Part shown: positions 1 through 36,704 of the stretch, one piece after another
Position numbering within the stretch: the first letter of the stretch is position 1
How the letters are laid out: each line of letters opens with the position of its first letter
Source of the DNA: a virus
DNA: 36,704 nucleotides
IMG/VR virus record: IMGVR_UViG_3300006735_000006
Span: 1 to 36,704 of that record
Direction: 5' to 3' (one strand)
Program-made: the position numbers and the translations under genes
The notes under the pieces: generated by a model
Seen by the model: the letters and a program-made list of their open reading frames with translations, nothing else
Database searches by the model: none
Told to the model about the DNA's origin: nothing

Positions 1-123
1 TCACTAGTCCTACGAATAACCAAACCCCTAAAACCAGGATTGCTAATATGTTTAAGCAAATATACAATACCAGCTGTAGTTTTTCCACCACCTCTGCTAC
101 CTCCATATAATATGAGGAAACAA
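1..123. repeat. Terminal direct repeat, left copy (circular overlap)
   Basis: This block is identical to 36582-36704. It lies inside the large-terminase coding sequence and includes its Walker A codons, and the reading frame continues correctly from one end to the other. The simplest reading is that a circular or circularly permuted genome was assembled with a short overlap, giving a unit length of about 36,581 bp. A true physical terminal repeat cannot be excluded from sequence alone. Confidence 0.95.
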
Positions 124-185
124 TCGTTGATAGCCAGGGCATATGTTTGTGGTCCACTATGTGGTTTAAATAAAACTCTGTCCAT
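1..185 (-). CDS. terL: Terminase large subunit, N-terminal part (continues at right end of window)
   Basis: These bases encode the first 61 residues of the packaging ATPase/nuclease, which translocates DNA into the prohead through the portal. The ATG at 183-185 is six bases after the stop of the upstream gene at 192, and an in-frame stop precedes it, so it is the only reasonable ATG. The Walker A loop GGSRGGGKT is visible at residues 28-36. No convincing ribosome site precedes the ATG, so translation may be coupled to the upstream gene. The frame runs off base 1 and is recovered at 36704-35372, giving a total of 464 residues, a normal size for a terminase. Confidence 0.93.
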   Translation of the reverse strand, partial: MDRVLFKPHSGPQTYALAINDCFLILYGGSRGGGKTTAGIVYLLKHISNPGFRGLVIRRTS

Positions 186-191
186 AGGTAG

Positions 192-494
192 TTAGTTATA
201 TTCTTTATCATCAGGTTCTTCTGCCTTTATACTTTCTTTTTGTTCTGGCATAAACACAAATCCAGCATTACTTTCAGTGTCTAATTTTAATTCTTGTGCT
301 TTTAAACTTGGGAATATCTTATCCATAAATTTCATAAGATACTCATGATGTTTAGGGTGATCAGGATCCATTGCATATCCTAATGCTAATTCTTTCATTA
401 CACCCTTACATTCTTCTGGGACATTAGCTTTGATGCTTGATCCCTTTGGTCTGCCTTTTGGATTACCTGATTGTCCTTTTTTAAACTTTGACAT
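192..494 (-). CDS. Candidate terminase small subunit (GQSGNPKGRPKG protein)
   Basis: A 100-residue charged protein lies immediately upstream of the large terminase. Its N-terminus carries the glycine/basic motif GQSGNPKGRPKG (residues 7-18). That motif is common in short phage proteins next to terminases and resembles a DNA-binding arm. The C-terminal 30 residues are acidic. Its start overlaps the stop of the 57-residue gene in a TAATG junction (492-496), and its stop is six bases before the terminase ATG. The position argues for the DNA-recognition subunit of the packaging motor. The sequence is short for a full small terminase and I see no clear helix-turn-helix, so this is an inference mainly from context and the N-terminal motif. 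Confidence 0.55.
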   Translation of the reverse strand: MSKFKKGQSGNPKGRPKGSSIKANVPEECKGVMKELALGYAMDPDHPKHHEYLMKFMDKIFPSLKAQELKLDTESNAGFVFMPEQKESIKAEEPDDKEYN

Positions 495-667
495 TATGAA
501 TATAAATTTGTGTATTTATTTTTCTTTTTCTTCCTATCATGTGCAAGATTAGTTCTTGATCTGTGTGATAGATTTGCTTCAGTCATTTCCCTATTATGTT
601 CTGCTTGCTTTTCTTTAGCCAATCTTTTGTTTTTTCTTCTATTCAGCAATTCTTTTATAACTGACAT
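494..667 (-). CDS. Small basic protein, 57 aa, unrecognised
   Basis: An ATG at 665-667 preceded by AGGAG six bases upstream opens a 57-residue frame beginning MSVIKELLNRRKNKR and ending NLYS. It stops at 494-496, sharing one base with the start codon of the next gene (TAATG). The protein is lysine/arginine rich and looks helical throughout, with no cysteine motif or membrane segment. The ribosome site and coupled junction make it a convincing gene despite its size. Its place just before the terminase genes suggests a packaging or late-accessory role, but no function can be assigned. Confidence 0.75.
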   Translation of the reverse strand: MSVIKELLNRRKNKRLAKEKQAEHNREMTEANLSHRSRTNLAHDRKKKKNKYTNLYS

Positions 668-674
668 ATGATCT

Positions 675-703: not shown

Positions 704-705
704 AA

Positions 706-2343: not shown

Positions 2344-2361
2344 AATTTTTGAGGTAAAGAT

Positions 2362-3732: not shown

Positions 3733-3938
3733 TTATTCTCCTTCATTTTTTTTATTTCAGTTTCCAATGATCTAATCCTGCAATCTTTTTCTTGTAGTGC
3801 TTTTAATACTTCTTCTCTTTGTCTTTTAAGAAACTCAACCTCACTAATAAGTTCTTTCCTGGACAAGTTCTGTAATAGTTCTAACATCACCTCTGGATTC
3901 TTTGCTATGATTGATGGATGATCTACTTTCTTTGCCAT
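3729..3938 (-). CDS. Coiled-coil protein, 69 aa, overlapping the replication gene
   Basis: The ATG at 3936-3938 follows AAAGGAG at ideal distance, yet it lies inside the upstream replication gene, overlapping its last 95 bases in another frame. Residues about 15-68 (ELLQNLSRKELISEVEFLKRQ onward to the C-terminus) form a continuous charged coiled coil. It is probably a partner of the initiator, for example a helicase-loader or oligomerisation subunit, but no family is recognised. It ends in an ATGA overlap with the 26-residue gene. Confidence 0.75.
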   Translation of the reverse strand: MAKKVDHPSIIAKNPEVMLELLQNLSRKELISEVEFLKRQREEVLKALQEKDCRIRSLETEIKKMKENK

Positions 3939-4677
3939 TTATTACTCCTTTGTTAGGTTTTAATTCTTTATTACAACATTTACTATCTTGACTTGCAACT
4001 GTGTATGGATCATAAAAATCACTTGATCCACAACCACTACAATATCCCATTCTTGCATTTCCTGTTGAATCAAGTTTAAAATCTTTAAATGATACCATAT
4101 CTTTTTTAACCACAGTTTTTATTATTTCATCATAATATCTTTCTTGATTTAAATATGTATGTGGATGTGGGATATATTGTTTTTCAGTGCCAGCATATGC
4201 TTCTTTGCAATGATCATTAATTACACTAACTGGAAGCTTGCTAAAATTATTCTTCCAAAAACTCCAGGCTTTTGCTTTTCCTGTTTTTCTTGGATAGTTA
4301 ATCCAAAAAAGATCAAAAGATTCTTTTTCTTCTTTATATTCTTTCTTTACATTAACTTTGGCATTTTGTCCTATACCCTGTGGGACAGCTATACCATAGG
4401 TATCTGACATACATCTTATAGTCCTTGATTCTATTTCCTTTGATCCAGGTTTGTAGTTTAGATCTACACTAACATAACCTTTCTTTTTAAGATCTGTAAT
4501 AGCCTTACTTACATAATCTTTGCTCACACCCAAACAATCACCAAAGTATTGATTAGATGCATAGCAACCCTTATCATTATCCAATCCCAGGATCTTTGCA
4601 TATAACAGCTTTTGCATCATTGATAGATCATTAGATCTCAATAGTTTTCCTGGTATTATTACATAATCATTATTCAT
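3844..4677 (-). CDS. Phage replication initiation protein (winged-helix N-terminus)
   Basis: The N-terminal 85 residues look like a winged-helix DNA-binding domain typical of phage replication initiators (MMQKLLYAKILGLDNDKGCYASNQYFGDCLG... with recognition helix near SKDYVSKAITDLKKKGYV). The middle carries the recurrent phage motif FWINYPRKTGKAKAWSFWKN and IPHPHTYLNQERYYDE, found in lambda O-like and DnaD-like replication proteins. A C-terminal cysteine cluster (CSGCGSSDFYDP then SKCC) may bind zinc. It would recruit host DnaB helicase to the origin, since no phage helicase or polymerase is seen. The start has AGGAG six bases upstream. The last 95 bases overlap the next gene. Confidence 0.75.
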   Translation of the reverse strand: MNNDYVIIPGKLLRSNDLSMMQKLLYAKILGLDNDKGCYASNQYFGDCLGVSKDYVSKAITDLKKKGYVSVDLNYKPGSKEIESRTIRCMSDTYGIAVPQGIGQNAKVNVKKEYKEEKESFDLFWINYPRKTGKAKAWSFWKNNFSKLPVSVINDHCKEAYAGTEKQYIPHPHTYLNQERYYDEIIKTVVKKDMVSFKDFKLDSTGNARMGYCSGCGSSDFYDPYTVASQDSKCCNKELKPNKGVINGKESRSSINHSKESRGDVRTITELVQERTY

Positions 4678-4956: not shown

Positions 4957-5105
4957 AAGTTATTCATGCTTTCTGCTTTTCTTTTTTTATCATTGTATCT
5001 TTTATTAGTAATCCTAATACAATTTTTACATTTCTTAACATACCATGGACCATTCTTTCTAAACTGATCCAATGGCTTATCTTCTTTGCATGTATTACAA
5101 ATCAA
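4950..5105 (-). CDS. Small two-CxxC zinc-finger protein, 51 aa, TTG start
   Basis: The frame starts with TTG (5103-5105), preceded at seven bases by AAGGAG lying inside the last codons of the exonuclease gene. The product opens (M)ICNTCKEDKPLDQF and contains CKNC, so two CxxC pairs spaced by about 20 residues. This is the layout of the small zinc ribbon (C-x-x-C...K-P-x-x-x-F...C-x-x-C) often found alone in phages or fused in front of HNH nucleases. A basic tail follows (NKRYNDKKRKAE). The next gene starts seven bases before its stop. Likely DNA-binding. No HNH domain is attached here. Confidence 0.75.
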   Translation of the reverse strand: MICNTCKEDKPLDQFRKNGPWYVKKCKNCIRITNKRYNDKKRKAESMNNLW

Positions 5106-5880
5106 TTTTAAACTCCTTAATTAGATCTGATTTAAAACTTGGTGTAGCTTTAGTTTCTCTTGCTTTGCTATAAAACTTATTAAACAAATATTCAGCACAT
5201 TCCAAGCTCTTTGGATCATATGGCATCTCATATAAAAATCTTGATGTTTTGCCTGGCACAGCACCTCTAAAGTTCTTTTTACACCACACTACATACATTT
5301 TATCAATAGGTTCTTTGTTTTGTGAATCCCATAAGTTTTTATATGCTGACATTTGCATACCATAAGATGGATCATCAGGTCTTTTAGATGTTTTCCAATC
5401 TAACATAGCTACTATCTTTTTCTTTGGATTCTTTGGATCAGGCATTTTTGTAATTAGATCAGGTCTGCCTGCATACCTATATTTTAGATCACCATCTTTT
5501 AGCTCTGTAGAATATAAAAAAGCTTCTATTTCAATGATGTCTTTTTTCTTAATACCAGATGTTTTCCACCAGGTAACAAAAGATGTTACTGCTCTTTGAA
5601 CCTCTGGATCCCTATCTGTAAACAAATACTCTTTTCCTGTAAGCAAATGTTCTATTATATCATGTGTTCTTATTCCTACTCTACTTGCTTCAGATTTCCC
5701 TTTAAGATATTTATCATAATCACCTTCAGATGCTGTTATTAAAAACTTATAAAACCATTCATCTTTAGGTGTTCCACCCTTTAACATAGTAGTAACAGAA
5801 GGGACAAATGTCCCCTCTGCTATCTCATACCATCTGCCATTGGATGTTTTGGCAATAATATCTTCCCAGTTCTTACTCAC
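5095..5880 (-). CDS. PD-(D/E)XK exonuclease (RecB/Cas4-type), recombination partner
   Basis: The 261-residue protein has the RecB-like nuclease motifs in order: a conserved His in THD (about 73), a Glu in IEIEAF (about 117-119), YAGRPDLI with catalytic Asp (about 136-143), LDWKT (about 160-164) with the second acid and lysine, and the motif with conserved Gln/Tyr MQMSAY. This family supplies 5'-3' resection for phage single-strand annealing systems. The GTG at 5878-5880 is preferred because AGGTGG sits five to six bases upstream. A GTG three codons earlier is the alternative. It overlaps the annealing protein gene by eight bases, a classic exo/SSAP pair. Confidence 0.87.
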   Translation of the reverse strand: MSKNWEDIIAKTSNGRWYEIAEGTFVPSVTTMLKGGTPKDEWFYKFLITASEGDYDKYLKGKSEASRVGIRTHDIIEHLLTGKEYLFTDRDPEVQRAVTSFVTWWKTSGIKKKDIIEIEAFLYSTELKDGDLKYRYAGRPDLITKMPDPKNPKKKIVAMLDWKTSKRPDDPSYGMQMSAYKNLWDSQNKEPIDKMYVVWCKKNFRGAVPGKTSRFLYEMPYDPKSLECAEYLFNKFYSKARETKATPSFKSDLIKEFKIDL

Positions 5881-6571
5881 TATGACCACCTTCTATTAAC
5901 TGTGCATCAATAGTGTTTAGATGTTTTTGCAATTTATCATCTATCTTATCTAACTTGGAAAAGTATTCTTTATTTTGTAGTAGTTCTGATTTAGTGCATT
6001 GAGCATAAGTTTTTTTCCTTAATGTAGGAAAACCATACTGCACCTTATCAGTAGGTTGGAAGGTTATGGCATCACTAACCATAAGTTTTTCAAGATCTAA
6101 ACCTTCTGATCCATCATATTGCTTTTCTTGTTCTAAAGCAACATCAGACATTCCACCAGGCTGTTTAGTTTTCTTTGCTTTTGCTAAACCAATATACTTA
6201 TCACCATCCCATTGATTTTCAAAAACATCAGAATTAAATCCAATTCTTGACAAACCTTTTGTTAATGCATCAGTTTGACAAGATTTCATACAATCATTTT
6301 TGATTTGATTATCTGAACATATTGCTACTTCACCAACTTGATCACCATCTTTATACCATAGAATAGCTGAATAAAAGATCCATTTATCTTCAAAATGTCT
6401 TATCTCATCTTTTATACCCCAGCCTATTCCCATAGGACCAAACATTTCTGTAGCTTTTTTTAATTGGGATTGTGCATCAATTACAGTAGGCTTAAAACCA
6501 TACTCTAATTTTTTTAAAGTTTTAGGATCAGAATCACACACTTGATTCCATATCCTCATATTATCTTTCAT
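5873..6571 (-). CDS. Single-strand annealing protein, Rad52-like (Sak3-type)
   Basis: The 232-residue protein resembles phage annealing proteins of the Rad52 superfamily. It has an early MRIWNQVCDSDPKTLKK segment, then FGPMGIGWGIK (residues 44-54), then CQTDALTKGLSRIGFNSDVF (residues 98-117), the conserved helix-loop of this group, followed by DGDKYI. These proteins form rings on ssDNA and anneal complementary strands. The C-terminal third is variable and charged, as usual. It is first in its operon, with AAGGAG six bases before the ATG, directly behind a candidate promoter, and overlaps the exonuclease gene. Subfamily name is less certain than the function. Confidence 0.82.
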   Translation of the reverse strand: MKDNMRIWNQVCDSDPKTLKKLEYGFKPTVIDAQSQLKKATEMFGPMGIGWGIKDEIRHFEDKWIFYSAILWYKDGDQVGEVAICSDNQIKNDCMKSCQTDALTKGLSRIGFNSDVFENQWDGDKYIGLAKAKKTKQPGGMSDVALEQEKQYDGSEGLDLEKLMVSDAITFQPTDKVQYGFPTLRKKTYAQCTKSELLQNKEYFSKLDKIDDKLQKHLNTIDAQLIEGGHSE

Positions 6572-7950: not shown

Positions 7951-8391
7951 TTACCCCTTATTGGCTTCTAAAAAATGTTTTATTGTTCCTTTTCCACCCT
8001 CTGTGTTATATGATTTCTTCCATAATTTAGCCATATCCTTTAGATTATTAGGAATAGGATCTGGAACCCTCCTATAGCATAATCTGCAAAATGCAACCTG
8101 TAATGCTATGTTAGACATAACACTAAAATGTTCATCTCCTTGCCTTAATCCATATTCAAGCAATACATTCATAACTTCTGGTCTATACCTGGCATAGTTT
8201 TTCAATACATCATCTATTGTATTTTTTTCTATTTGGAAAAATCCTAATGCTGGACCATTTCCCATTTGCTCTAAATGTCTAAAGCCAGTTTCTGCATTGC
8301 CTGTAGCTATGATCAGATCTACAACATCTTCACTATACATGTCTAAATCTTCACAAACTTGTTTAGCTATTTTTCTAATACTATCTTTCAT
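7951..8391 (-). CDS. Lysozyme-like / lytic transglycosylase endolysin, 146 aa
   Basis: The segment TGNAETGFRHLEQMGNGPAL (residues 30-49) continuing GFFQIEK has the lysozyme-superfamily arrangement of a catalytic glutamate (Glu34) followed by the G-x-x-G-x-x-Q element of SLT-type peptidoglycan hydrolases. No signal peptide is apparent, so release would depend on the holin. The ribosome site overlaps the stop codon of the giant gene (TAGGAG). It cleaves the glycan strands of peptidoglycan in host lysis. A role as a virion-associated lysozyme is also possible given its place behind the ejection proteins. Confidence 0.75.
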   Translation of the reverse strand: MKDSIRKIAKQVCEDLDMYSEDVVDLIIATGNAETGFRHLEQMGNGPALGFFQIEKNTIDDVLKNYARYRPEVMNVLLEYGLRQGDEHFSVMSNIALQVAFCRLCYRRVPDPIPNNLKDMAKLWKKSYNTEGGKGTIKHFLEANKG

Positions 8392-8399
8392 TTTTTCTC

Positions 8400-11300
8400 C
8401 TAATCTAAATAATCTAAATAACTTTTCTTTGATCCACTATCTACTGGCTTTGCTTTTACTTTCTTACCTTCACCCTGTTTAGGATTGTAAGGGTTCATCA
8501 TAATATCTTCACCTGTTAATTCTTTTTGATTTTTTCTAAATGCTCTTACTCTTTGTTTGTATACTTTTTTATCTAATGTTCCTTTTTCTACTGCACCTGC
8601 ACCAGTTCTGTAAAATCTCATTATCTCTTGTTTTCCATAGGCATAAACTTTAGATCTGTCATATATTTCAAAAAATGTTGATTGCTGATCCCAGCCATGA
8701 CCTTCTTGAACAAATACATCAAGCAAAGGATAATTATCTGGTGCTACCAATTCTCCATTTTTAATACCCTCATAAGCAAAGTTTGTTGCATCCATAAAAT
8801 CTTTAGTTAATCCTCCACCATAAGCTCTCATAAAATGATCTATTTTTTCTGGATTTAGATCTACTCCCCCAAACCCTTTTTCATTTGATGTTGCTTCATA
8901 CAATGCTCTTGTTGCATCTCTTGATGTTGGATAAACTCCTTTAAAGTAAGATTCATGTTGAAATAAATCTGGCTGACCTGGAAAAGATGTTTTATAAATA
9001 GGTGATCCCATCCAATTAACACCACCATGACCTGATTCATGTGTTTTGTTTATTTGAGCTATAGGCTGTAGAATAGTAGGTGTAAACATATTCATTGATC
9101 CTATTGGATTAAACCCTTGATCTACTGCTTTTAAGAATCTTTTAAAACCTCTTTCAAAAGTAGTTCCAGATCCTGCTTCTAATCCTAAAAGTTCTTGATA
9201 CCATTCTTGTCCAGCTAAAATATCTTCCAGTATTACACCAGTAGACCAAAAAGCATTTAACCCATATCCTACTTTCATAGATCCATATTTCTCTGTTCCT
9301 GGTATAGTAAGTAAAAACATGTTGTCTTTTTGATAATCATCTACTTTGTTATCCCACTCATCTGGTGCTAACAATCTATTTATAAGTGATTGGAAAAATC
9401 CTGCTATTACTAATCCATTTAACATCTTTTTAGCTTTTGGATTTTTTGCATATGAATATAATAGTTTTGCAGATCCCTGGATCCCAGCATTACTAAATAC
9501 CCATAACCTATTAAAGAAAGCTCCCCATGTTCCTTTTTTATTAAAGTTTACTGTTAGGTTCTTTGCAAATTGTGCAGATTTTTCTTTTGAATTTCCTTGT
9601 TCTACCATTTCTCTAAACACCATTAACCTAATACCATTTTCTACTGACATGTTTACATCTTCAACAAACTGTCCCATTTGTGCAAATATTTGTTTAGTTT
9701 TTCCTTTACCTTCTAATATAGAAATTTGTTTTTCAAGATCAGCTAATTTATCTTCTACTGTCATTTGATCCATCCAGCCAACTTTGCCACCATTTAGTTT
9801 AAATTGATTATACCAATATTCCCATCCCCCAGCTCTTTCTTGCACTCTTGGTTTAGCTTTGCCAGTTAATGCTAACTTTTTTAAATCCTCTGGTATAAAA
9901 TAATAATTTATTTTTTGTGTGCTTGTTTTAGTTTTTTTATTATATACCATTTCAGCATCTTGACCTAAACCAAATTCCATCACATCTCCTGGCTTAACAC
10001 CACCCAAAGATTCTATTTCTTCCATAACTCCTGATGGAACATCTTTAGGATCTATTTTTTCTTTGTCTATATTTGCCAAAATCCATGTTCTTGTTAGCTT
10101 TGTAAGATCTTTAAAATAAATATAATTAAAACCTGTTTTTTCTTTTTTACCTCTTGAAGCTCTGTATATACCTCTTATAGATGATCCAAGATTTTTATAT
10201 ACATTTAAAATACTTTTAAAACCAAGGCTTTCTGTCATGTTTATGCCAGCAGTTTGTGCATCTCTTTGAAAATTTGTTATTATAAATTTCAATCTTAAAG
10301 ATGTGTTTACTGATCTAAAAAATGTATTAAAAACACTAAAGCCTTTATAGATCAATTCTAATCCTTTAGAGCTGTTTTTATTTGGACCTCTTAATGATGC
10401 TAAAAGTAGATCATCTTTAATTTCTATAATTTTTGCTTTTCCATCTATTCTTACTTCAATTTGATTTCCTCTTAAATTTTGATCTAAAGGCATAAACAAA
10501 GTATTTCCTTCTTCATCAAAAGTATCTGATACTGTTTCTTCACCAGAAGGTAATTTTTTATAAACAGGCATAACCCTTTTACCTCTTGGTTTACTCCATA
10601 AGTTTGTAGGATATTTTTCTACTAAATTATAAAATGCTTTTAATACATTGTTTTTCTCTATTAAAGATATTGCACTTTCACGATCTGCAAAAATTTGCAC
10701 CAAAGGATTATCAGCTGAAGATTCTCTACCTTTAGCTCCTATTATACCTGATCCAGTGACTGTATATTTTCTTCCTTGTCCCATAAACATGCTACCTTTT
10801 TTGCCACCTAAACCTTTTAATGGAACATAATATTGATACATATCTTGCATTTCATCAAAAGAATCTTGTGATATTATTCCATTCATATATAGCATTTCTA
10901 ATGTTTCTTCTGCTATAGCATAAACACCAGGTGCTATTCCTGATCCATCATCTTCTTGTTCAGCAAATTCTTCATAAAGTTTTAATTTTTCTGGTGAGAT
11001 CATAGCAAAATAATCTTTTATTTGTTTCTCTGTTTTTCCAGATCCATTTTCTTTTCCATGTTTTTCTAATATATGTTTATTTCTTTCTTGTGCATGCTTC
11101 ATGTATAAATAATCACCAAGCTCTTGTATGCCAATACCTAACTCTTTCATTCTTTTTATAAATGGTGATATAGTGTTTTTTCTAAATAGATCTATTTTTT
11201 CAGCTGTTTTTCCTGGCAATAATTCATGCTTCATATAAGCATCAAGCTCATCTGGGATCATTCCAATTTCTTCTTGAACCACTTTCATTCTTATCATTTC

Positions 11301-14300
11301 ATCTTGGATTCTATGTAGCCACCATTGCCATGCAGAAGCATCATCTATAAATATATCTTCACTGTTCATTATTTTGTCTTTATTAACATTCAACTGGAAT
11401 GAAGGTAAATTTGTGTTCCAAATAATATCTCTTAATTCTTTATCTACTTCTATATTTATTCTTGGGTTTCTTTCATATGCTAATGTTTTTTTACCTTCAG
11501 GTGTTTTTTTATTTGTAGGTCTTTCTATTCCTAAATCACCAGGTCTAAATGCTGATAAACCAATCATAATTTCGTCATTAATCATTACTGCTTGCTCATC
11601 AGCATAATGCATGCTCTGACCTTCAACAGAGTTTTCTGGATCAGGCATACCATTAGACCACATTAAATCTTCTGAATCCATATCAGGATAATCACCAGTG
11701 TAATCAGGATCTGATTCAAAAAACCCCCATTCAGATACTAAAGTATTAATTGCTCTCTGTGTTGTATTATCATATCCTTGTGTAGGTAATTTCATATTTA
11801 ACTGAAATTCTTCACCTGTCCACTCTATTGTAAAAATATCTTTTACTTCTCTAATCATGTCATCCCATTGATCACTTCTACCAGTGTTGTCAAATTCTTC
11901 TGAACCTTTTTTAATTTGTTCAAAAATATGTGGATAAAATGCCATAATTAATTGCCTAACAGATGTTTCTTTTTGTGTGTCTATAGCATTATTACTAACT
12001 AATTGCATAAACTGTCTGCTTAAAAAACCTATGTCTAAATTTAAAGCTTGAAAAGGCTCTGGTCCATAGCCATCTTGATAAGCAACATTATCTAAAAAGA
12101 TTGAATATGCTTTTTCAATTTGTTTAGCTTCACCTATACTTTTAGCTCCTTTTAATTCACTTCGTCTTTCATCAATTACAACAAAGTCATTTTGAAATTC
12201 AAAAGGTATTAGTTTTTGTAATTTTTTAAGATCTGAAGGTATTCTTTTTGTGTAGACATTTGCATAGTGTGATTTTGTAGCTAAAAGCTGTTCTCCCTCT
12301 GGTGCTTTAACACTATTTATTAAAAACCCTGCTGGTATGTTTTGGTAATCACCAGTGTATTCTTTAACTAAATTATTAGCACCCTGAACACCACCTTCTA
12401 TAGCTCTTTGTGTATTATAATCTATATCAATCCAGCTATTCATAAATAGATCACCATCTTTTTTTTCTGGATTTCTAAAAGATCCATATTCTTGTCCTGT
12501 AGATAATATCATGTTTGAATAAAAACCTTCTGACATTTCCATAAAATGAACATATCCCAAGTTTATTCCATAATCTTCTAACAAAAGCATACCACTAACA
12601 TTGTTACCTCTTTTGTCTTTATATTTAATATAGTATGGTATAACTCCTTTACCAGCTGTTGATTGTATTTCTTTTAATTGATCTATCTTGCTTTGTAATT
12701 CTAATTGTGAATCAACACCTAATTTGTGTAACCAGCTTTTTGTCCAGGCATTTAAACCTCCAACATATGTATCTTGTTCAAAAACAGCTGTTCCTGGTTC
12801 AAATTTTGTTGCTCCATATTCATGATTAATTTTTATTTTACTTTCAGGATCTAATCTTTTAAATTCTTCATTAATTATTTCTAAACCTTCTATTAAATTT
12901 GACAATAAATTTGTGTTGTCATACATTAACTGATCTTCATTTTTAGTGTTTAATAATGTTTCTTTTATTCCTCTGTTAAAATCTTGGACATCTAAAACAG
13001 CAGTAAGGTTATAAGCTTCATTATCTAATATGCCAAGATCTATATACATTCTTTCCCATGATGCCATTCCATCACCTAAATATAAATTGTTAAAAGCATT
13101 TCTTAATTTGAATGGATTTTTATATTGAAATAGATCTTTTGTGTCTACATATTTTATTGTTGTTTGACCTTCATTGTTTTTAATTTTGTTAGCAATATCT
13201 GATCCTAACTGTGATAATTGCATTTCTGTTAAATTTTTATGTTCTGTTTCTTTTCCATCTTTATCGTATGCCCACACCTCGTATTTTGGTCCATGGGTTT
13301 TTTGTGCAGGTAATAATAAATCAAAAACAAAAACTTGAAACACATCTCTTGGCTCTACATTTTCACCTTTTACATTTCTAACTATTGTAGATGCATTGTT
13401 TGCCCAACTTGCTAAAGAAGGATATTCTCTTGCTAAATCTTCTTTTGGTTCTACTGCCCATTCAACACTACGACCATCATCTGTATCTAATTTTCTAATG
13501 GTCCAGTTAGCTGGATCGTATATTTCAGATCCCCATTGTTTTTCTGCTGGTGCTATCCATTTAACTTCAGATGCATAATCCCAAGCATAATTTTGTAATG
13601 CTATTTCTTCAGCTGTTGCAAACTGTATTCTGTCTACATTCATCTGACCAGCTGTTTTCATTATAGATTTTAATGCAAGAGATACCCATGCCATGTTTCT
13701 GTATGGTGTTTGTTGTATATCAAATTTTCCTGGCTCAAAACCTTCTTTTTCTTGAAACTTTTCTACACCTTTAAATTTAGATATATCAGATCCTACTTGT
13801 TGTTCATAATCACTTTGCAATTCTTCTATAAATAAAATTCTTTTAAGATTGCCATTTTTATCTGCTATTTTTCTTATAGTATATCTTACATGTGCAATGT
13901 TTTTTCCTAATCCATGATTTTCATAATCAAGATCCATTTTCTTTTCATAATTTGGTGTATGAACAGTAAACACTCCATATTCTATTACATCATCTCCACC
14001 TAATCTAATGCTTGAATATGGTGCAAGTTTTGAGAGCATACCATTGTCTATCATTTTATTAAGCTCTAAATTCCACATAATATCTACACCATCAGCATCA
14101 GGTGAAAAATCTACTTTATGTTCTGCTACTAATCTAAAAATATTATTTTCAGCAATATCTTCAAATGAAACAGCTCCTGTTTTCATTAATTTTTGCAGGA
14201 TCTGAATTTCTTGTAATGCATCTGACAATGTTTTATCATTGCCTGCCCAATACATATCTTCTGATTTTAAATCTTCAACAGTTAATTCTTCGTTCATTAA

Positions 14301-25000: not shown

Positions 25001-25649
25001 TAACAGTTTTAAAAGTATCTCTTTCTAATGGTCCTTCTTGAACACCATCATAGATTCCTGTTATTTTATAAAAATAATGTTTACCTGATGGCAAATGACC
25101 TCCAGAATCTACAGATGAAGAAACCCATTGATGAGGTGGTGCATATGCTTTATCTTCTATCCAATAGCCATCAAAAACTACTTCTCCATTCCAGAATGTT
25201 CTTTTAATATAATCTATATATGTAGCATAATCTTCCCATCCATTTAATATTCTTAAACTACCTCCAAGGTCTACGATTTGTATTACAGAATCATTTGTGT
25301 GTGATAGAACACCCCAATCAGACCATGATACCATGTCATCTGAAGATCTTGCTACTCTAATATTATCTCTTTGTTCTGAATCATAATAAACTACAACCCA
25401 AAATGGCTGTATTGTAGTTTGATCTGAATGAACTTTGTCAATCCATTTATATAGAATAATAGGCTGTATTTTTCTACCACTTGGATCCACTAAACTTTTT
25501 TGCAAGGCAGATATTACAACAGCCATATTTTTTATATATCCATCTTTAAAATCAACATTGACAGCTTCAATAAATCCATTTTCTGCTACTGCTGATGGAC
25601 TTGATTGTTTGTCAAGACCTTGGGTAAGATTAAATTGTTTTACTGGCAT
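22065..25649 (-). CDS. Large tail-nozzle-like protein, 1194 aa
   Basis: The N-terminus (QFNLTQGLDKQSSPSAVAEN followed by EAVNVDFKDGYIKNM) is the usual opening of podovirus tail nozzle/stabilisation proteins (T7 gp12 or P22 gp10 type), in which the protein forms a beta-propeller ring. The region around 790-920 (FSEFNSPDIIPI, GSLVVFSDNAIFRLNI, IEIKGALIFANKEGLYLMDA) is a repeating propeller-blade pattern. It is larger than T7 gp12 (about 800), with a long insertion at about 330-760 that may add decoration or receptor contacts. It directly follows the adaptor gene. Confidence 0.7.
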   Translation of the reverse strand: MPVKQFNLTQGLDKQSSPSAVAENGFIEAVNVDFKDGYIKNMAVVISALQKSLVDPSGRKIQPIILYKWIDKVHSDQTTIQPFWVVVYYDSEQRDNIRVARSSDDMVSWSDWGVLSHTNDSVIQIVDLGGSLRILNGWEDYATYIDYIKRTFWNGEVVFDGYWIEDKAYAPPHQWVSSSVDSGGHLPSGKHYFYKITGIYDGVQEGPLERDTFKTVNITGSANATAKLVFSINKLEWNPRITHLKIYRGTNTVADETGVQYYHIKTLSTYIPEGQESSDQSNYFTGRRMASLGSVITGVLPNQAVTNGPDHWQGGDLFWSGITITNGSWSSNADDLDIWRDNPFQTCINKGSWTNSFQWGYGDNTGLTDHTAIGGDLYGVNYLMNYHQAHTPGEPWYQRARNAGAYVRKIRSLGNGYVTLDHEFWKDDEVLGPSEMQQHKREAQKFFGIAGNDKIAFITDASNMLYDARTLGLQHGGWYYSSPGQGEHSTTMFGESDIANNTDGHQMGKFSHWEYTLSVPNSSLDGWQVVGQNADKTRELKKDTWYAVTSTVLPYRSGSSPGQLTWSIGIATVPNTTTNYKTQHQGSYANDVIFRADVNLNNLDNDIGHQYIWVFKTSSAWGSATKKFAFATGVFDTGGNVDTDNTMGFTVHSPGVFEIKQGPIAGGYFGNDTFGVQADLNASGVSVSTNDIVGINNQDYTVLNTQVVGTDEMIKIDENLDDIGSLSMTLKKDASIDVDATDPEKINVTMYDSGLTDGAVHKFGDTSTSIQYKCAKMINGRLFAGNVRLNPESDDERHPNWIMFSEFNSPDIIPITNYIAITDLGDAGNITQFAEIAGSLVVFSDNAIFRLNIPSYDPTAWSLMEATRLIGLTSPDAVIEIKGALIFANKEGLYLMDANFVPRKISTKIQDEWKINYSDAIKIAYQPKEESIWVSFENGDTYKVKASGDQEIWTEILLGEHSDLTVNPSTYALDYETRNLLGVRVYDEETLATSLDEDPSQWGYIQKPFGFLTGWVLIADPLETKIVRSITVEYDYNNWSDYENKLLRLELYTDMRRKQTNTSDLFERAYNHELNSGMYKPRENGAIWYTDMPITTDTNNETVIHKDLLTDQNYVYADQGYGEDYNMDQSIPNDLLYDHENEDKQGLWNKVSRTGRTVTFKVNKRAYACQLKVSTNWSILKESVSIKNIFISYE

Positions 25650-26308
25650 TAGGCTCCTTTAGTAGATCCTGGTGTTACTCTCCCATATGTCCCTACTCCT
25701 TGTGGTTTTTCTACTGCATACCTTTCATTTAAAGCTTTTAAAAACCCCATAGAACTTTCTAAAGCTACATTAGCTTTTGTGTAATCTCCATCCATTCTCC
25801 ATAATAAAGCTTCAGCTAAACCAACAACAATTTCGTGCAATGATTCATCTAATTCACAATCTTGATCAGATGCTATATCTAATGGTTTTCTTAAATGATA
25901 AATTGTAACACTATCTGTGTTTGCTGGCTTTATGTTTATGTGATCTGCAAAAACATAGCCTACTGGATTATCAGAAGAAGCTGACATAAAAGTATTTTCT
26001 AATCTCTTTACATCTTTAAATTCTATTAAATTTACATATGCACCCACAGATGCTGAATTATTATATACAGCAAAAATGCCATTTCTTATTGGTGTATATG
26101 TAAGTGTTGAAAGATCATATTTTCCATTAGCATCCAATGTTACTGTTTCACTTGTTTCTAATTCTGTAAGTATTCCATTATCAGCAGTATTAACTACTTG
26201 CATTTGTGCTAAATTTAATACTTTGTATCTTGTGCTTGTAGAGTATGCCCTGTAATCTGGATCAGCACATCTCAATCCAAGCATGTCCAACATTTCTATA
26301 TTTGTCAT
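25649..26308 (-). CDS. Head-tail adaptor/tail tubular protein A-like, 219 aa
   Basis: The ATG at 26306-26308 (MTNIEMLDML) is preceded by AGGAGG and shares a base with the upstream stop (TAATG). A longer frame is not supported by a ribosome site. Helical N-terminus (STSTRYKVLNLAQMQVVNTA), a beta-rich middle (HINIKPANTDSVTIYHLRKP) and a long C-terminal helix (ELDESLHEIVVGLAEALLWR) match phage adaptor proteins that join portal and nozzle. It lies directly before the nozzle-like gene, as expected. Confidence 0.65.
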   Translation of the reverse strand: MTNIEMLDMLGLRCADPDYRAYSTSTRYKVLNLAQMQVVNTADNGILTELETSETVTLDANGKYDLSTLTYTPIRNGIFAVYNNSASVGAYVNLIEFKDVKRLENTFMSASSDNPVGYVFADHINIKPANTDSVTIYHLRKPLDIASDQDCELDESLHEIVVGLAEALLWRMDGDYTKANVALESSMGFLKALNERYAVEKPQGVGTYGRVTPGSTKGA

Positions 26309-27030
26309 TAATGACCTCCTGTTAAGTTTGTAGATATATCTAAAAAGTTTCTCAAATACCATTTATCTTCTAAATAGATCCATTCTGTTACATCACCACT
26401 TGCAGTAACAATATTTGTTGATCCACCTATTAAACCACTACTGGTAACATCAAATGTTATAGCTCCTTTTGAAACTATTATTATTTTCTGCATATTTACT
26501 GCTTCATCAAAATCTGTTATAGTTAATGTTCCAGTGTGTGTGTTAAAATAATTAGATCCATAAACACTTGGTGTTGCATCACCTGAAGCAAAAGTTTTAA
26601 ATACAGTTGTAGTTTTAACTACTTGCTTTGATGGATAACCCTGTTGATCTAAAACTGTATCATTATTAGGATATGCTACTAAATCTATGTCAGGTGTAAC
26701 TGTTGCATTAACCTTTTTCCCAATTAAAGATCTAAATACTTTTGGATTTCTTACTGTCCTTTTTGCTGATATTTTATCTACACCACCATAATTTCCTGAT
26801 CCATCAGCTTTAGCACCCCCTGATAGATAATTATGTATATAAGTTTGAATTTCTGTTCCTTTTGGTGAAGAAGCAAATAATAGATCAGCATTTGTGTCTG
26901 ACCAATCATAATAATTTCCTGATGTATCTTTAACTGTGAATGTCCACTGTTTAAATACTGATCCTTCTTTTTCCTCTGTTGCATCTATTACATCTGATGC
27001 ATTTGCTTCTGCACTTGTAAATTTAGCCAT
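26308..27030 (-). CDS. Structural protein, 240 aa, fibre- or decoration-like
   Basis: The protein is beta-rich. The C-terminal part (GTLTITDFDEAVNMQKIIIV, then GAITFDVTSSGL and WIYLEDKWYLRNFLD) recalls the small beta-sandwich ends of phage decoration or fibre proteins. It lies among other fibre-like genes downstream of the capsid and ends in a TAATG overlap with the adaptor gene. A specific family is not recognised. Confidence 0.55.
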   Translation of the reverse strand: MAKFTSAEANASDVIDATEEKEGSVFKQWTFTVKDTSGNYYDWSDTNADLLFASSPKGTEIQTYIHNYLSGGAKADGSGNYGGVDKISAKRTVRNPKVFRSLIGKKVNATVTPDIDLVAYPNNDTVLDQQGYPSKQVVKTTTVFKTFASGDATPSVYGSNYFNTHTGTLTITDFDEAVNMQKIIIVSKGAITFDVTSSGLIGGSTNIVTASGDVTEWIYLEDKWYLRNFLDISTNLTGGH

Positions 27031-29267: not shown

Positions 29268-30437
29268 TTAGTATGATGTTGGTCCACCTACAATAAGACC
29301 TTGCATTCTACAATTAGAACTTGTTAATTGTCCCATCCAGAAAATACGAGCTTGCATTACATCATTGCCCTCTTGTCTTTTAAATGGATCAAAAGCAAAG
29401 TTTCTTTTAGAGTGAACTTTGAAATCAAGATACTTTGTATTTAAGAAATACATTTGTCCAGCAGGACAATGTGAATCTACAACAACAGTAGCACCTTTGA
29501 ATCTCAATGTTTGGAACCCAGCATCAGCTAATGTAGAATCCCCAGCCCATCTTTTGTTTGCTTGCAACGAACTTTCATAAGCATCAAACATGGTTTGAGT
29601 AGTTACAATTAGATCAGGTTGATCATTATCAACTGTGCAAGCACCATACATTCTTGTCATTTGCTTAACTAATTCAGCAACACCATTAGTAGTAACAGTA
29701 AGCTCATTAAATGTAGCTCTTGTTGTTTTTGTTGAACTAATTGAAGCTAACGATAAGAAAGGACTATTCCACCATTTATTATCATCAGTTGAAGAAGGAT
29801 AAGTATCAATATTACCTACTTTTCTTCTAAAACCAACAATAGTATTATCTATTGCACCAGGTGCATGCCATTGTGGATTAGTTACAGGATTCTCTAAAAT
29901 ACCAGCAGGGTGATCAGCTGTTCCTAAACCACCAGCATCAATAGCTGTGTAGTTTGCACTTGCTTCTGTTCCTGCACCATTAAGAGATGTTAATCCAGCA
30001 GTTGTTCCACCAGTAGAAGCAAAAATTGCATCACCAAAAAGATCTTTCATAGATTTTTCAGCATTTTTCATTTTTGATTTTAATAGTGAAAGAACTTGTG
30101 AATCTCCTTGGTTCTTGTGTTCTTCATCACCTCTGAAATAGATTCCTGCATAAGCAGTAGACCATTCCCATTCACTTGCACTTATAATTTCCTGATCAGC
30201 AATAGCAGTAGCTGTTGAACTACCATAGTCAATAAATCCTTGAGATTTACTACCACCAGAAGATGCTACCTTACCATATTCCACAGGGACTATAATTTTC
30301 TTACCACCATCTAATTTCTCTGCATTTGATAATAATTTCAATAACAGAGCATTAGAATTGAAAATGTTGTCCACTAAAATAGGTATGAATTTATCTCTTG
30401 TTAGAGCTGTCAGGTTTCCATAATTTAAACCAGCCAT
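29268..30437 (-). CDS. Major capsid protein, 389 aa
   Basis: N-terminal ALTRDKFIPILVDNIFNSNA (about 11-30) with GGKKIIVPVEYG is the usual start of HK97-fold coat proteins of short-tailed phages. A long helix follows (SLLKSKMKNAEKSMKDLFGD), and the C-terminal domain contains PDLIVTTQTMFDAYESSL and KGATVVVDSHCPAGQMYFLN, typical of such shells. The length is normal. AAAGGAG before the ATG is ideal for high expression, and the gene follows the scaffold gene by 23 bases, as expected. Confidence 0.8.
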   Translation of the reverse strand: MAGLNYGNLTALTRDKFIPILVDNIFNSNALLLKLLSNAEKLDGGKKIIVPVEYGKVASSGGSKSQGFIDYGSSTATAIADQEIISASEWEWSTAYAGIYFRGDEEHKNQGDSQVLSLLKSKMKNAEKSMKDLFGDAIFASTGGTTAGLTSLNGAGTEASANYTAIDAGGLGTADHPAGILENPVTNPQWHAPGAIDNTIVGFRRKVGNIDTYPSSTDDNKWWNSPFLSLASISSTKTTRATFNELTVTTNGVAELVKQMTRMYGACTVDNDQPDLIVTTQTMFDAYESSLQANKRWAGDSTLADAGFQTLRFKGATVVVDSHCPAGQMYFLNTKYLDFKVHSKRNFAFDPFKRQEGNDVMQARIFWMGQLTSSNCRMQGLIVGGPTSY

Positions 30438-32879: not shown

Positions 32880-33060
32880 TCTTTTTCCCCTTTATATCTT
32901 TTGCTATTCCTGTTAGTTTTGCCTTTTTAGCCAATGCTACTACTTTTGGGTTTTCTGATCCTGATGCTGATAGAATACATTCTTTTGTTACTCCATCATA
33001 ACCATTTGAATCACACCATGCTTTTAATGTGAATACTCTTTTATTGCCCAGTATTGCCAC
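32869..33060 (-). CDS. Small basic protein after portal, 63 aa, GTG start
   Basis: The GTG at 33058-33060 overlaps the portal 3' end by 20 bases and has AGGAG four bases upstream. The product reads (M)AILGNKRVFTLKAWCDSN and then NPKVVALAKKAKLTGIAKDI, with a Lys-rich tail. No family recognised. It is cotranslated with the portal and the very basic protein. Confidence 0.6.
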   Translation of the reverse strand: MAILGNKRVFTLKAWCDSNGYDGVTKECILSASGSENPKVVALAKKAKLTGIAKDIKGKKNVR

Positions 33061-34810
33061 CTGGCTCCTGTTCTTCTGGATTCTGGTAACCCATCTGATG
33101 CATCATTCTTATTTTAGCTTGCATGATCTCATCTTCATTTGTAGAAGCTCCAATAGTATCCATGTCTTGCTCCATCTGCATCATTACTTGTTTCTTCTGT
33201 TCAAGTAATTCTTCTAATATATCTTTTGATATATCTTTCTGTGTCCATCTCCAAAACTTTTCTGGATCTAATAATCCTAACTGCATTAGGTCCATTGCTT
33301 GATCAAATCTACTTGCTCTTGATTCAGGCATACTTGATCCTGGTATATATTTAAAATCCATATCATCATCTAAATCAAATGGATTTACAGAAGAAAACTC
33401 TAACCCTGTTCCCTCTGTGTATTTTCTTACATCAATTTGTTTTTCATAGTTATTTTTCAATATACTTAAAGTCATCTTATATAGATCTATAATTGCATCT
33501 TGACCTACTTCTCTTTCTTTTGTTCTTATGATCTGCTGTGATGCTTCTTGTAATTGTGCTATTGCTCTACCAGCTGTAACACCACTTGGATTTCTTCCTT
33601 GTGTAATGTCATGCACACCACTAACTGTGTCTGTTATTTGCATTAACCCTTGTGCTAATGGCAATGTAGATGCACTAATATTTCCAGCAGGTAAACGATC
33701 TACTTTTTCATGTGGACCATTAGTATAATATATTTGTCCAGGCTTATCTGTTGGTCTGTTACCTGGATGCTTTGCCATTGATTTAGACATAACAACAGCA
33801 GGATTACCATGGTAGATCATATTATCTAATCCTTGTGATAATAATATACTTGTTCCTACAGATAATGTTTCAATAACCTCTGGCTCACCTTTACCCCAAA
33901 AAGAATGTGAATCCATATAATTTTTAAATGATACTAATGGTATAAATGGATATGGTGATTCTACTTTCTGCAACATAACCTTACCTGCCCATGTGCATAT
34001 ATATAATACATCATCCTCATAATACCAGGCTTCTTTAAGTAATGCTTGTCCACCTTTGTATATCTGATCACCTGTGTCATCACCTCTATATGCTGGTGAT
34101 TCTTCTCTTAATTCTGTTTTATAATCTTTTGATTCAGCAAACTTATTATTATGTTTTACAAAACTCTTATATTCATTTAGCTCACCTTCACTTTTAACAT
34201 ACTTGCCATTAGGATATTGATTTGCTATATCTTTAACATAAGTAGGTGTTGCAAAAACTACACAAGATGATTCTTGCAGGTTCGTAGCTAAAGGATCTAT
34301 GAACACTGTATATGGATCAGGTGTTAAGTAGTTTACATGACCTTCTTCTTGATCATACATTATCTTAATAAACCCATTACCATATATCAATCCATCCTTC
34401 TTCATAGCACTTACAGCTCTTGCAAATTTAAACTTATCCATTTCTGATTCTACTGCTTCTTGTGCTATCCTTGCCTGATCAACTTGTTCTTCTCTTTTAG
34501 GCATAATGTCTGTTTTAGGGTTACGATCAGTTAATATAGAATATATAGTTTCAACTGTGCTGTGTATAGTATTAGCAACTACTCTACTTTTATATTTAGG
34601 CAAGTTAAATGGCTTAAAGAAATCACCTCTATATAATTCTTCGTTTCTTCTCCACCTTCCAATCTTATGTTCTTTAGCTTTCTTTCCAGCTTCAAACATT
34701 CTATTCATAGCCTTTAATGATTTTCTTTCTTCTGCTGTTGGTGTATACTCACCTTTAATAGTAGTTAAACCATCACCAACTTCTACATCATCATATTTAG
34801 TCATTGCCAT
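33041..34810 (-). CDS. Portal protein, 589 aa
   Basis: The size and content match podovirus portals: N-terminal helices (KIGRWRRNEELYRGDFFKPF), a central NGFIKIMYDQEEGHVNYLTP then DPYTVFIDPLA, typical for the wing region, PFIPLVSFKNYMDSHSFWGK, and ITDTVSGVHDITQGRNPSGV in the stem region. The C-terminus is a Met/Gln-rich helix (LLEQKKQVMMQMEQDMD) that may extend into a short barrel. Twelve copies form the ring through which DNA enters and leaves the capsid. The start overlaps the upstream gene by 14 bases. It is the third gene after the YkgJ-like gene. Confidence 0.82.
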   Translation of the reverse strand: MAMTKYDDVEVGDGLTTIKGEYTPTAEERKSLKAMNRMFEAGKKAKEHKIGRWRRNEELYRGDFFKPFNLPKYKSRVVANTIHSTVETIYSILTDRNPKTDIMPKREEQVDQARIAQEAVESEMDKFKFARAVSAMKKDGLIYGNGFIKIMYDQEEGHVNYLTPDPYTVFIDPLATNLQESSCVVFATPTYVKDIANQYPNGKYVKSEGELNEYKSFVKHNNKFAESKDYKTELREESPAYRGDDTGDQIYKGGQALLKEAWYYEDDVLYICTWAGKVMLQKVESPYPFIPLVSFKNYMDSHSFWGKGEPEVIETLSVGTSILLSQGLDNMIYHGNPAVVMSKSMAKHPGNRPTDKPGQIYYTNGPHEKVDRLPAGNISASTLPLAQGLMQITDTVSGVHDITQGRNPSGVTAGRAIAQLQEASQQIIRTKEREVGQDAIIDLYKMTLSILKNNYEKQIDVRKYTEGTGLEFSSVNPFDLDDDMDFKYIPGSSMPESRASRFDQAMDLMQLGLLDPEKFWRWTQKDISKDILEELLEQKKQVMMQMEQDMDTIGASTNEDEIMQAKIRMMHQMGYQNPEEQEPGGNTGQ

Positions 34811-34988
34811 TGATTCTTTTCTTCCTTAATTTTTGAATTAATTCTATACCACTTGGTCTACTAGCTGTTTGTGCTTGTAGGTTAGATAAATAGTTATCAT
34901 CACCAAATTTTATCTTATCTTTTTCTTCTTTCTTTCCACTCATTCCTGCAAGCATTGGTAAAAATTTCATTATAATACTTGGATCCAT
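34797..34988 (-). CDS. Small protein before portal, 63 aa
   Basis: The ATG at 34986-34988 shares a base with the upstream stop (TAATG) and AGGAGG stands seven bases before it. The product MDPSIIMKFLPMLAGMSGKK has a short hydrophobic stretch, then a charged segment and a basic end (IELIQKLRKKRINGND). It overlaps the portal start by 14 bases. Unrecognised, possibly a portal-assembly accessory. Confidence 0.68.
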   Translation of the reverse strand: MDPSIIMKFLPMLAGMSGKKEEKDKIKFGDDNYLSNLQAQTASRPSGIELIQKLRKKRINGND

Positions 34989-35113
34989 TAAGCTACCTCC
35001 TGATTGCCTGTGTTCTCATCAGTTAATTTACTTATTAACTTTTTACCATAAGTATGGTTATATGCATTACTCTTTAATTTCTTTTTCTTTATCAATTTCT
35101 TTACTGCTGTCAT
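34988..35113 (-). CDS. Small basic protein, 41 aa
   Basis: The ATG at 35111-35113 overlaps the TGA of the YkgJ-like gene (ATGA), and the stop shares a base with the next start (TAATG). The product starts MTAVKKLIKKKKLKSNAY and ends GNQEVA. The tight coupling on both sides and the absence of any other frame in this 121-base interval support it. Function unknown. Confidence 0.62.
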   Translation of the reverse strand: MTAVKKLIKKKKLKSNAYNHTYGKKLISKLTDENTGNQEVA

Positions 35114-35397
35114 ACATCCTCATATATTTTTTTATCTGATCCTACTAAATTCTGAATACTATTACAATTTTTCATTGTGCCTATATAACCACCACCAGGA
35201 TCCTCTTTAACTCTACATATGTCTGGTCTATCTTCATATATTTTACACATATTGTTATCATCTAAATGTATACATGCACCATCTTCTCTTTGTCCAATTT
35301 CATTTCCTTCTTCATCTCTAATCAGTCCAATCATTCCTGCAATCTTACAGCATGCACCACATTGTTTACAATCAAAAGTTATAGCTCCATCCTTCAT
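35110..35397 (-). CDS. YkgJ-family cysteine-cluster protein, 95 aa
   Basis: The motif CKQCGACC (residues 10-17), then CIHLDDNNMCKIYEDRPDIC (about 42-61), matches the YkgJ (zinc/iron-chelating cysteine cluster) family, small proteins thought to bind a metal ion or cluster. Its biochemical role is not established. It lies between the large terminase (26-base overlap) and the portal group, with GGGG at good distance before the ATG. A role in packaging or a host-metal function cannot be told apart from sequence. Confidence 0.82.
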   Translation of the reverse strand: MKDGAITFDCKQCGACCKIAGMIGLIRDEEGNEIGQREDGACIHLDDNNMCKIYEDRPDICRVKEDPGGGYIGTMKNCNSIQNLVGSDKKIYEDV

Positions 35398-36704
35398 CTT
35401 TATCCCCTTCAGTTAATTCTTTAAACTTCCTTTGTTCTGCATTTAACTTTGGTTTTGGTTTAGATGGAACCTGCAAATGGTTTATAATGTATCTACAAGC
35501 ATCCATTGCATGATCTTCAAGTGTAGTATCTACATCTTCTGGATTCTTTTCATCTCTTATCATTAATGGTATTGTTCTTACCAAATTAGGACATCTTCCC
35601 TTGATCACATAAAACTTATGATCATGTATCATTTCAGACATCTTCATCCATCCATTTACTCTTGTATTGTTAGCTGGTTGTAGATTCTTTACCCATGGAT
35701 TGTGTGGCTCTCCTATTAATGCATTAGCTATACTTGTTTCACTAAATGCTGGTCTGTCTGGACTACTCCAGGACATTGGATTCTTGGTCCACATACTTGG
35801 ATCACCTAAACTCATTATTACATCTGATGATCTACTATGTATTTGTGTTGCCCAATGACTTGGATGTTTCTCTGCACCATACAATTCATCATAAACAAAT
35901 ATCTTATTATCATAAGTATATTCTCCCCATAATGCACAAAAGGGTGCTGAATAACCCCAGTCAATCCCAACATATCTTGCATTGCCATCAACTCCAAACC
36001 CTAATGATCTTGCTTCTTCTTCAGTTATAACATGTTTATTAGGATCCCATTCAGTAAAGTATTGCCCTGCATATATATCCCAATTACCATCTCTCCATGC
36101 TTCCCTTAATCCATCTGGTAGTGAATCCAGAAACTTAACATAATCTGGATCAGCTTTCATTAGTGTTGGATTGTCATCAACTGTAGCTGGTATAAATATA
36201 CTATATCTTTTACTAATTGGATCTCTAAATGCTTTATTAGGTTCTTTCTGTCCTATCTTCCATTTCTCACGAACCCAACTATGTCCTGGACCACCAGGAT
36301 TAGCTGTGCAAAAGATCTGTGGATCAATACCTTTAACAGTAGATCTACAACTTGATGCTAATTTCAAAAAACTTTCTTCGTTTGGTATTTGTGTCAATTC
36401 CTCAATTACCATTCTTTGATATTCATGTCCCTGGTATTTCTGATAAGCATTGTCATCTCTTAAATGTCCACATCTTATCAAAGCTCCTGAAGGAAACTTT
36501 ATCGTTGCTGGTTTACCTGTTACTACACCTCCAGCTGGTGCATACATAATTCTTGCTCTATCTATCCAATCTACAAGATCTTCACTAGTCCTACGAATAA
36601 CCAAACCCCTAAAACCAGGATTGCTAATATGTTTAAGCAAATATACAATACCAGCTGTAGTTTTTCCACCACCTCTGCTACCTCCATATAATATGAGGAA
36701 ACAA
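35372..36704 (-). CDS. terL: Terminase large subunit, main part (N-terminus at left end of window)
   Basis: Joined with 185-1 this gives a 464-residue terminase. Numbered on the full protein, Walker A GGSRGGGKT is at 28-36 (encoded in the duplicated end), Walker B-like MVIEEL at about 119-124, the coupling motif CTANPGGPGH at about 153-162, nuclease motif GIDWG at about 267-271, LGDPS at about 320-324 and the final EDHAMDACRY (Asp about 418). All three nuclease acids are present, so both ATPase and RNase H-like nuclease domains look intact. It cuts concatemers and drives DNA through the portal. It overlaps the YkgJ-like gene by 26 bases. Confidence 0.95.
   Translation of the reverse strand, partial: CFLILYGGSRGGGKTTAGIVYLLKHISNPGFRGLVIRRTSEDLVDWIDRARIMYAPAGGVVTGKPATIKFPSGALIRCGHLRDDNAYQKYQGHEYQRMVIEELTQIPNEESFLKLASSCRSTVKGIDPQIFCTANPGGPGHSWVREKWKIGQKEPNKAFRDPISKRYSIFIPATVDDNPTLMKADPDYVKFLDSLPDGLREAWRDGNWDIYAGQYFTEWDPNKHVITEEEARSLGFGVDGNARYVGIDWGYSAPFCALWGEYTYDNKIFVYDELYGAEKHPSHWATQIHSRSSDVIMSLGDPSMWTKNPMSWSSPDRPAFSETSIANALIGEPHNPWVKNLQPANNTRVNGWMKMSEMIHDHKFYVIKGRCPNLVRTIPLMIRDEKNPEDVDTTLEDHAMDACRYIINHLQVPSKPKPKLNAEQRKFKELTEGDKDEGWSYNF
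36582..36704. repeat. Terminal direct repeat, right copy
   Basis: Exact copy of 1-123. See the left copy: the shared block lies within the terminase gene and joins the two gene parts in frame. Confidence 0.95.

What the first reader, a model, noticed from the sequence alone, without database searches (positions are those of the whole stretch)
1..36704. CpG survives only as ACGA/TCGT across the whole genome
Reading the full sequence by eye I found about 80 CpG dinucleotides, roughly a tenth of what the base composition predicts. Every one is in the same tetranucleotide, TCGT or its complement ACGA. I saw no GCG, CCG, CGC, CGG, ACGT or TCGA. The whole stretch 8041-10680 contains no CpG at all. 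Simple CpG depletion would leave ACGT and TCGA at similar rates to ACGA, so this is a context rule. Consequences: no GCG, CCG, CGC or CGG codons, Arg CGA only after A and CGT only after T. Possible causes are a methylation or restriction system (host or anti-phage) that spares ACGA, a mutational process in methylated CpG, or protection of ACGA as a functional word. I do not know a described case.
Basis: partly seen in the sequence, partly recalled or inferred. Interest (0 to 1): 0.85.

Follow-up and report, generated by a model that had tools for sequence, protein, structure and literature searches.

The report
Phage genome purged of restriction sites
This marine phage genome really does keep CpG only inside ACGA/TCGT, but this is one visible corner of something wider: the phage and each of its relatives have erased a different set of short DNA words, most of them typical cutting sites of bacterial restriction enzymes, so the rule looks like evasion of several host enzymes at once.

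Summary
The 36.7-kb window has 82 CpGs (observed/expected 0.093), all TCGT or ACGA. It is not a single CpG rule. The same genome also lacks GTAC (0 against about 71 expected under synonymous-codon shuffling), GGCC, CTNAG, GASTC, AGWCT, GTYRAC, GATATC, GAATTC, CAATTG, CTGCAG and asymmetric sites such as CTCTTC, GAGAC and GGGTC, and nearly lacks CTAG. Outside CpG, missing words are strongly enriched for palindromes. Of 119 testable commercial restriction specificities, 27 are absent.

Over forty relatives lack different mosaics: GATC in 23 of 43 phages (at least 9 changes on the tree), CATG in 9, AGCT in 3. The four parts of the window's CpG rule (no GCG, CCG, ACGT or TCGA) occur separately in other members, CCG only nearly so. 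ACGA is what none of the four hits.

Best explanation: accumulated, currently selected avoidance of many host restriction-modification targets. The kind is known; the number of targets, their turnover, and avoided 3-base CpG words without a listed enzyme are unusual. Host and enzymes were not identified.

The parts
1..36704 (.). Whole genome under the word exclusion: no GCG, CCG, ACGT, TCGA, GTAC, GGCC, CTNAG, GASTC, AGWCT, GTYRAC, GATATC, GAATTC, CAATTG, CTGCAG, CTCTTC, GAGAC or GGGTC; CTAG 5 only
1..123 (+). direct terminal repeat, left copy (identical to 36582-36704)
36582..36704 (+). direct terminal repeat, right copy
35372..36640 (-). terminase large subunit
   Evidence: phrog_979 E=4e-32
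33041..34810 (-). SU10-like portal protein
   Evidence: PF23899 E=8e-32
29268..30437 (-). major head protein used for the family tree
   Evidence: phrog_9953 E=1e-43; tree
25649..26362 (-). SU10-like adaptor protein
   Evidence: PF24175 E=3e-8
8400..18617 (-). 3405-aa polyvalent protein with LPD38 domain
   Evidence: PF18857 E=6e-20, phrog_14770 E=3e-109
3844..4677 (-). replication initiation protein (HTH_36)
   Evidence: phrog_270 E=3e-28
5095..5889 (-). PD-(D/E)XK exonuclease
   Evidence: phrog_298 E=3e-30

Best explanation
The window is a marine tailed phage (no methyltransferase of the three families searched) whose genome has been cleared of the recognition sites of many host restriction-modification systems. 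Restriction cuts incoming unmethylated phage DNA, so mutants lacking a site survive; when the host population carries many enzymes, successive clearances accumulate. CpG survives only as ACGA/TCGT because four CpG-containing targets or target groups (GCG, CCG, ACGT, TCGA) have been cleared and together they cover every NCGN word except ACGA/TCGT. Shown here: the exclusions, their palindrome bias, their independence in relatives, and continuing absence despite divergence. Inferred: that restriction enzymes are the agent. Unknown: the host, its enzymes, and whether GCG and CCG are each one target or several 4-5-base targets.
For: (a) Missing words are not limited to CpG: GTAC 0 against 71, CTAG 2 against 71, CTAAG 0/33, AGACT 0/32, CTCAG 0/23, GGCC 0/11, GAATTC, GATATC, CAATTG, CTGCAG and GTTAAC all 0 under a synonymous-codon null. 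(b) Among words without CpG, absent ones are enriched for palindromes: 3/11 against 0/99 tetramers, 4/24 against 3/355 pentamers (interrupted), 5/26 against 16/1219 hexamers; Fisher p 8e-4, 4e-4, 4e-5. (c) Many match known Type II sites: RsaI, BfaI, HaeIII, DdeI, MlyI, HincII, EcoRV, EcoRI, MfeI, PstI, EarI, BsmAI, TaqI, MaeII, HpaII, HhaI; 27 of 119 testable commercial specificities absent. (d) Relatives carry different complete exclusions: GATC in 23 of 43, CATG 9, AGCT 3, GGCC 21, with at least 9, 6, 3 and 10 changes on the head-protein tree. The sister L033 (76% head-protein identity) differs in 8 of 14 tested words. (e) CpG components separate: L072 lacks all GCG plus ACGT but keeps CCG and TCGA; L073 nearly lacks CCG but keeps GCG; L049/L051 lack TCGA; L036 and L105 lack ACGT. 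(g) No N6/N4, C5 or D12 methyltransferase in the window; 4 of 36 family members carry a C5 methyltransferase, including the sister L033.
Against: No host or cognate enzyme was identified. GCG, CCG, VCGB-like (L056) and near-total CG loss (L043, L071) are shorter or more degenerate than any site of that form in the enzyme list checked. TpG and CpA are raised (1.39 and 1.23), as CpG-to-TpG mutation would give, though that is also the easiest route of site removal. L033 lacks GGCC despite its methyltransferase.
Confidence: 0.86

Rival explanations
1. A single CpG-directed system (one enzyme or methylase) tolerates only ACGA/TCGT, and the other missing words are unrelated.
For: In the window the exclusion within CpG is absolute (82 of 82); L043 and L071 are almost CpG-free (O/E 0.01 and 0.03), so something close to a whole-CpG target may exist.
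Against: The complement of ACGA cannot be written as one recognition word; it needs at least CGS + ACGT + TCGA. Those parts vary separately among relatives: GCG without CCG in L072, CCG without GCG in L073, ACGT alone in several, TCGA alone in others.
Confidence: 0.08
2. Mutational loss of methylated CpG (deamination) with context dependence.
For: TpG 1.39 and CpA 1.23 over expectation with CpG 0.09.
Against: Cannot remove GTAC, CTNAG, GAATTC or CAATTG; predicts graded loss, not zero in nine of ten contexts; sister L033 keeps TCGA, CCGA, GCGA and ACGA; new CpGs arise in L001 but only as TCGT.
Confidence: 0.03
3. By-product of host-like codon or dinucleotide usage.
For: AT-rich genome; AGA dominates Arg codons (342 of 417).
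Against: Synonymous-codon shuffles keeping the codon usage give about 241 CpGs, three quarters of them outside ACGA/TCGT; codon junctions and non-coding DNA obey the rule; GC-matched marine phages of another family do not show it.
Confidence: 0.02

Closest known systems
Restriction-site avoidance in prokaryotic viruses (Rusinov et al. 2018, PMC6286503, and earlier work cited there)
   Same: Complete or near-complete elimination of Type II sites from a phage genome, mostly palindromes; mostly in non-temperate phages.
   Different: That survey finds eliminated sites to be a minority case (about one-tenth of viral genomes). Here one 36.7-kb genome shows about 16 inferred exclusions and close relatives have different sets. 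Some excluded words (GCG, CCG, VCGB, almost CG) have no such specificity in the enzyme list I checked.
GANTC depletion in about half of pelagiphages (PMC9516812)
   Same: Marine phage group in which some members have cleared a methylation target and others have not.
   Different: One adenine-methylation word there; here many words per genome.
[quoted passage not shown]
   Same: Avoidance of several Type II targets tuned to the hosts met.
   Different: Statistical under-representation in plasmids, not absolute absence of many words in one genome.
C5 methyltransferases carried by phages
   Same: Sister L033 carries a 697-aa C5 methyltransferase with a long variable region between the conserved halves, an alternative way to survive restriction.
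   Different: The window has none; its protection would be sequence-based.

Membership tests
Restriction-site avoidance (orthodox Type II) | Sites eliminated (observed/expected below 0.1, expectation above 15) | tested here: met
   GTAC 0/71, CTAG 2/71, CTNAG 0/57, ACGT 0/28, TCGA 0/20 under the synonymous null; a different expectation formula from the paper's
Restriction-site avoidance (orthodox Type II) | Excess of palindromic words among the absent ones | tested here: met
   Fisher p 8e-4, 4e-4, 4e-5 for 4-, 5- and 6-mers
Restriction-site avoidance (orthodox Type II) | Avoided words are known recognition sites | tested here: met
   and for most; not for GCG, CCG and AGWCT, which are not in the enzyme list used
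Restriction-site avoidance (orthodox Type II) | Host encodes the cognate restriction systems | not testable with these tools
   no host found; one distant relative lies in a contig of a Flavobacteriales MAG, too weak to assign
Restriction-site avoidance (orthodox Type II) | Genome not protected by own methylation | tested here: met
   PF01555, PF00145 and PF02086 not found in the window; base hypermodification cannot be excluded from sequence
Restriction-site avoidance (orthodox Type II) | Non-temperate lifestyle | tested here: inconclusive
   no integrase among the Pfam and PHROGs matches, but most proteins are unassigned
CpG loss by methylation and deamination | Loss confined to CpG with excess TpG/CpA | tested here: not met
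   TpG/CpA are raised but many non-CpG words are also absent

The most novel reading that the evidence does not exclude
The CpG exclusions with only three or fewer fixed bases (GCG in the window and L072; CCG in the window, and all but GCCG in L073; VCGB in L056; nearly all CG in L043 and L071) are footprints of host defence systems with very short CpG-centred targets that are not yet described, so that phage word absence could be used to discover uncatalogued restriction specificities in uncultured marine bacteria.
Probability: 0.3. Interest if true: 0.75.

Novelty: new variant of a known kind. Interest (0 to 1): 0.55.

Why it matters
If correct, each genome in this phage group is a readable record of the restriction enzymes its lineage has had to survive, with sets changing over modest protein divergence. 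That gives a way to infer defence repertoires of uncultured hosts from phage sequence alone, to measure how fast those repertoires turn over, and to find recognition words for which no enzyme is known. It also warns that a striking dinucleotide rule can be the overlap of several ordinary selection pressures.

Tried and rejected
Host identification: the capsid search of 84,980 species genomes found one distant relative (36%) in a contig of a Flavobacteriales MAG; it does not follow the rule, so no host is claimed. The annotated phage collection holds only distant relatives, at most about 36% identity. Single-motif explanations of the CpG rule (YCGR, RCGY, SCGS, VCGB) were considered; none leaves exactly ACGA. 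Methyltransferase-for-avoidance trade-off: four members carry C5 methyltransferases, but their specificity cannot be read from sequence and L033 lacks GGCC regardless, so this is only suggestive. Uniqueness: rejected, because two Manatee Spring phages lack 27 and 25 of 172 commercial specificities, so multi-site avoidance is not confined to this group. The plain-composition expectation overstates some absences in CpG-poor controls, so codon shuffles were used for the claims about the window. Papers: no report of this CpG pattern found in the held library.

Full report
Observation. All 82 CpGs of the 36,704-base window are TCGT (50) or ACGA (32), at 9% of the expected CpG number. The record has a 123-bp direct terminal repeat and the gene content of a tailed phage: terminase, SU10-like portal and adaptor, head protein, and a 3405-aa polyvalent protein with an LPD38 domain. 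There are no tRNAs.

Chance. Shuffling synonymous codons, which keeps every protein and the codon usage, gives about 241 CpGs spread over all ten NCGN classes (ACGA 60, ACGG 33, ACGC 30, ACGT 28, GCGA 25, TCGA 20, CCGA 20, CCGC 13, GCGC 8, CCGG 6). Observed in coding DNA: 71, all ACGA/TCGT. The codon usage itself is already shaped by the exclusion, so this null is conservative. Codon junctions and non-coding DNA obey the rule, so the constraint acts on DNA.

It is not only CpG. The tetramer scan showed GTAC 0, GGCC 0 and CTAG 5. Under the codon null the window lacks GTAC (71 expected), CTNAG (57), AGACT (32), GAGAC (17), GACCC (16), CTCTTC (14), GACTC (12), GGCC (11), GTYRAC (12), CAATTG, GAATTC, GATATC and CTGCAG. 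The greedy inference lists 16 exclusions; its weakest members (below about 15 expected) should be read as provisional. Outside CpG, absent words are palindromic far more often than words in general, the mark of Type II restriction. GATC, by contrast, is over-represented (306 against 183).

Decomposing the CpG rule. The set of NCGN words minus ACGA/TCGT equals {GCG-containing, CCG-containing, ACGT, TCGA}. Relatives show these parts separately. L072 has no GCG and no ACGT but 43 TCGA, 85 ACGG/CCGT and 20 CCGG. L073 has 11 CCG-containing sites, all GCCG, while GCGA is at 52. L049 and L051 lack TCGA but keep GCGA and ACGC. L036, L056, L063 and L105 lack ACGT but keep TCGA. L056 keeps almost only words with TCG or CGA (VCGB avoided). 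L065, L066 and L076 lack SCGS almost completely. L043 and L071 have lost nearly all CpG. So ACGA is a remainder, not a protected word.

Mosaic and tempo. On a tree of 43 head proteins, complete absence of GATC (23 phages) needs at least 9 changes, GGCC 10, GCGC 9, ACGT 7, CATG 6, CCGG 6, TCGA 4, CTAG 4, AGCT 3 (absence here means at most 3% of the plain-composition expectation). Pairs with 85-95% head-protein identity differ in 1.4 of 14 words on average, those at 65-75% in 3.9. The sister L033 (76%) differs from the window in 8 of 14. A second near relative, L002, resembles L033: no CTAG, AGCT, GGCC or CTNAG, but GTAC 9, GAGAC 10, GGGTC 12.

Continuing selection. L001 is a contig of the same phage species (93-97% nucleotide identity). 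CpGs are gained and lost between the two, and those present in either copy are TCGT/ACGA. L001 also lacks all the non-CpG words. The random placement ignores protein constraint, so the ratio is approximate.

Controls. HTVC106P-like phages at similar GC, which share several IMG sample numbers with the group, show other exclusions; of the window's non-CpG tetramer losses they share only GGCC. That sharing of samples is also the basis for calling the group marine. Among 33 genomes tested against 230 commercial specificities, the window has the highest share of testable sites absent (27 of 119, 23%), others 0-21%. Two Manatee Spring phages reach 27 and 25 of 172, so multi-site avoidance occurs elsewhere.

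Mechanism. The window has none of three DNA methyltransferase families; four of 36 members carry a C5 methyltransferase, including the sister. I conclude, at 0.86, that the phage has cleared targets of many host restriction systems. The restriction agent is inferred: no host or enzyme was found. The shortest exclusions (GCG, CCG) may be single unusual targets or sums of 4-5-base targets such as CCGC, GACGC, ACGGA and GCGC; the window alone cannot tell.

Relation to the literature. Avoidance is an established phage strategy, with elimination in about a tenth of genomes and almost only for orthodox Type II sites (PMC6286503). A marine precedent is GANTC depletion in half of pelagiphages (PMC9516812). 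What is unusual here is the number of exclusions in one small genome, their turnover among relatives, and CpG-centred words without a listed enzyme. I rate it a new variant of a known kind.

Noticed in passing
control loci L168 and L173-L252 (HTVC106P-like marine phages, 737 kb): CNCG (=CGNG) is almost absent: CACG 4, CCCG 1, CGCG 0, CTCG 3, against 1000-2800 for each other XNCG word. This is a group-wide avoidance of an asymmetric word with three fixed bases; I found no report of it in the searches made.
   Followed up: partly
window 1-36704: GATC is over-represented (306 in coding DNA against 183 under the codon null; AGATCT 53 against 20), while 23 of 43 relatives have almost none. Cause unknown.
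   Followed up: partly
L255 369-2462 (G004, sister phage L033): 697-aa C5 methyltransferase with a long region between the conserved halves, possibly several target-recognition domains.
   Followed up: partly
L170 and L172 (Manatee Spring phages MW202803, MW202462): Each lacks about 25 of 172 testable commercial restriction sites, mostly 6-base palindromes.
   Followed up: no
L073 (G027): All 11 remaining CCG-containing sites are GCCG/CGGC, so the excluded word there is HCCG; the phage also carries a C5 methyltransferase.
   Followed up: no
window 35110-35397: Small CxxCxxCC zinc- or iron-chelating protein between terminase and portal (PF03692).
   Followed up: no
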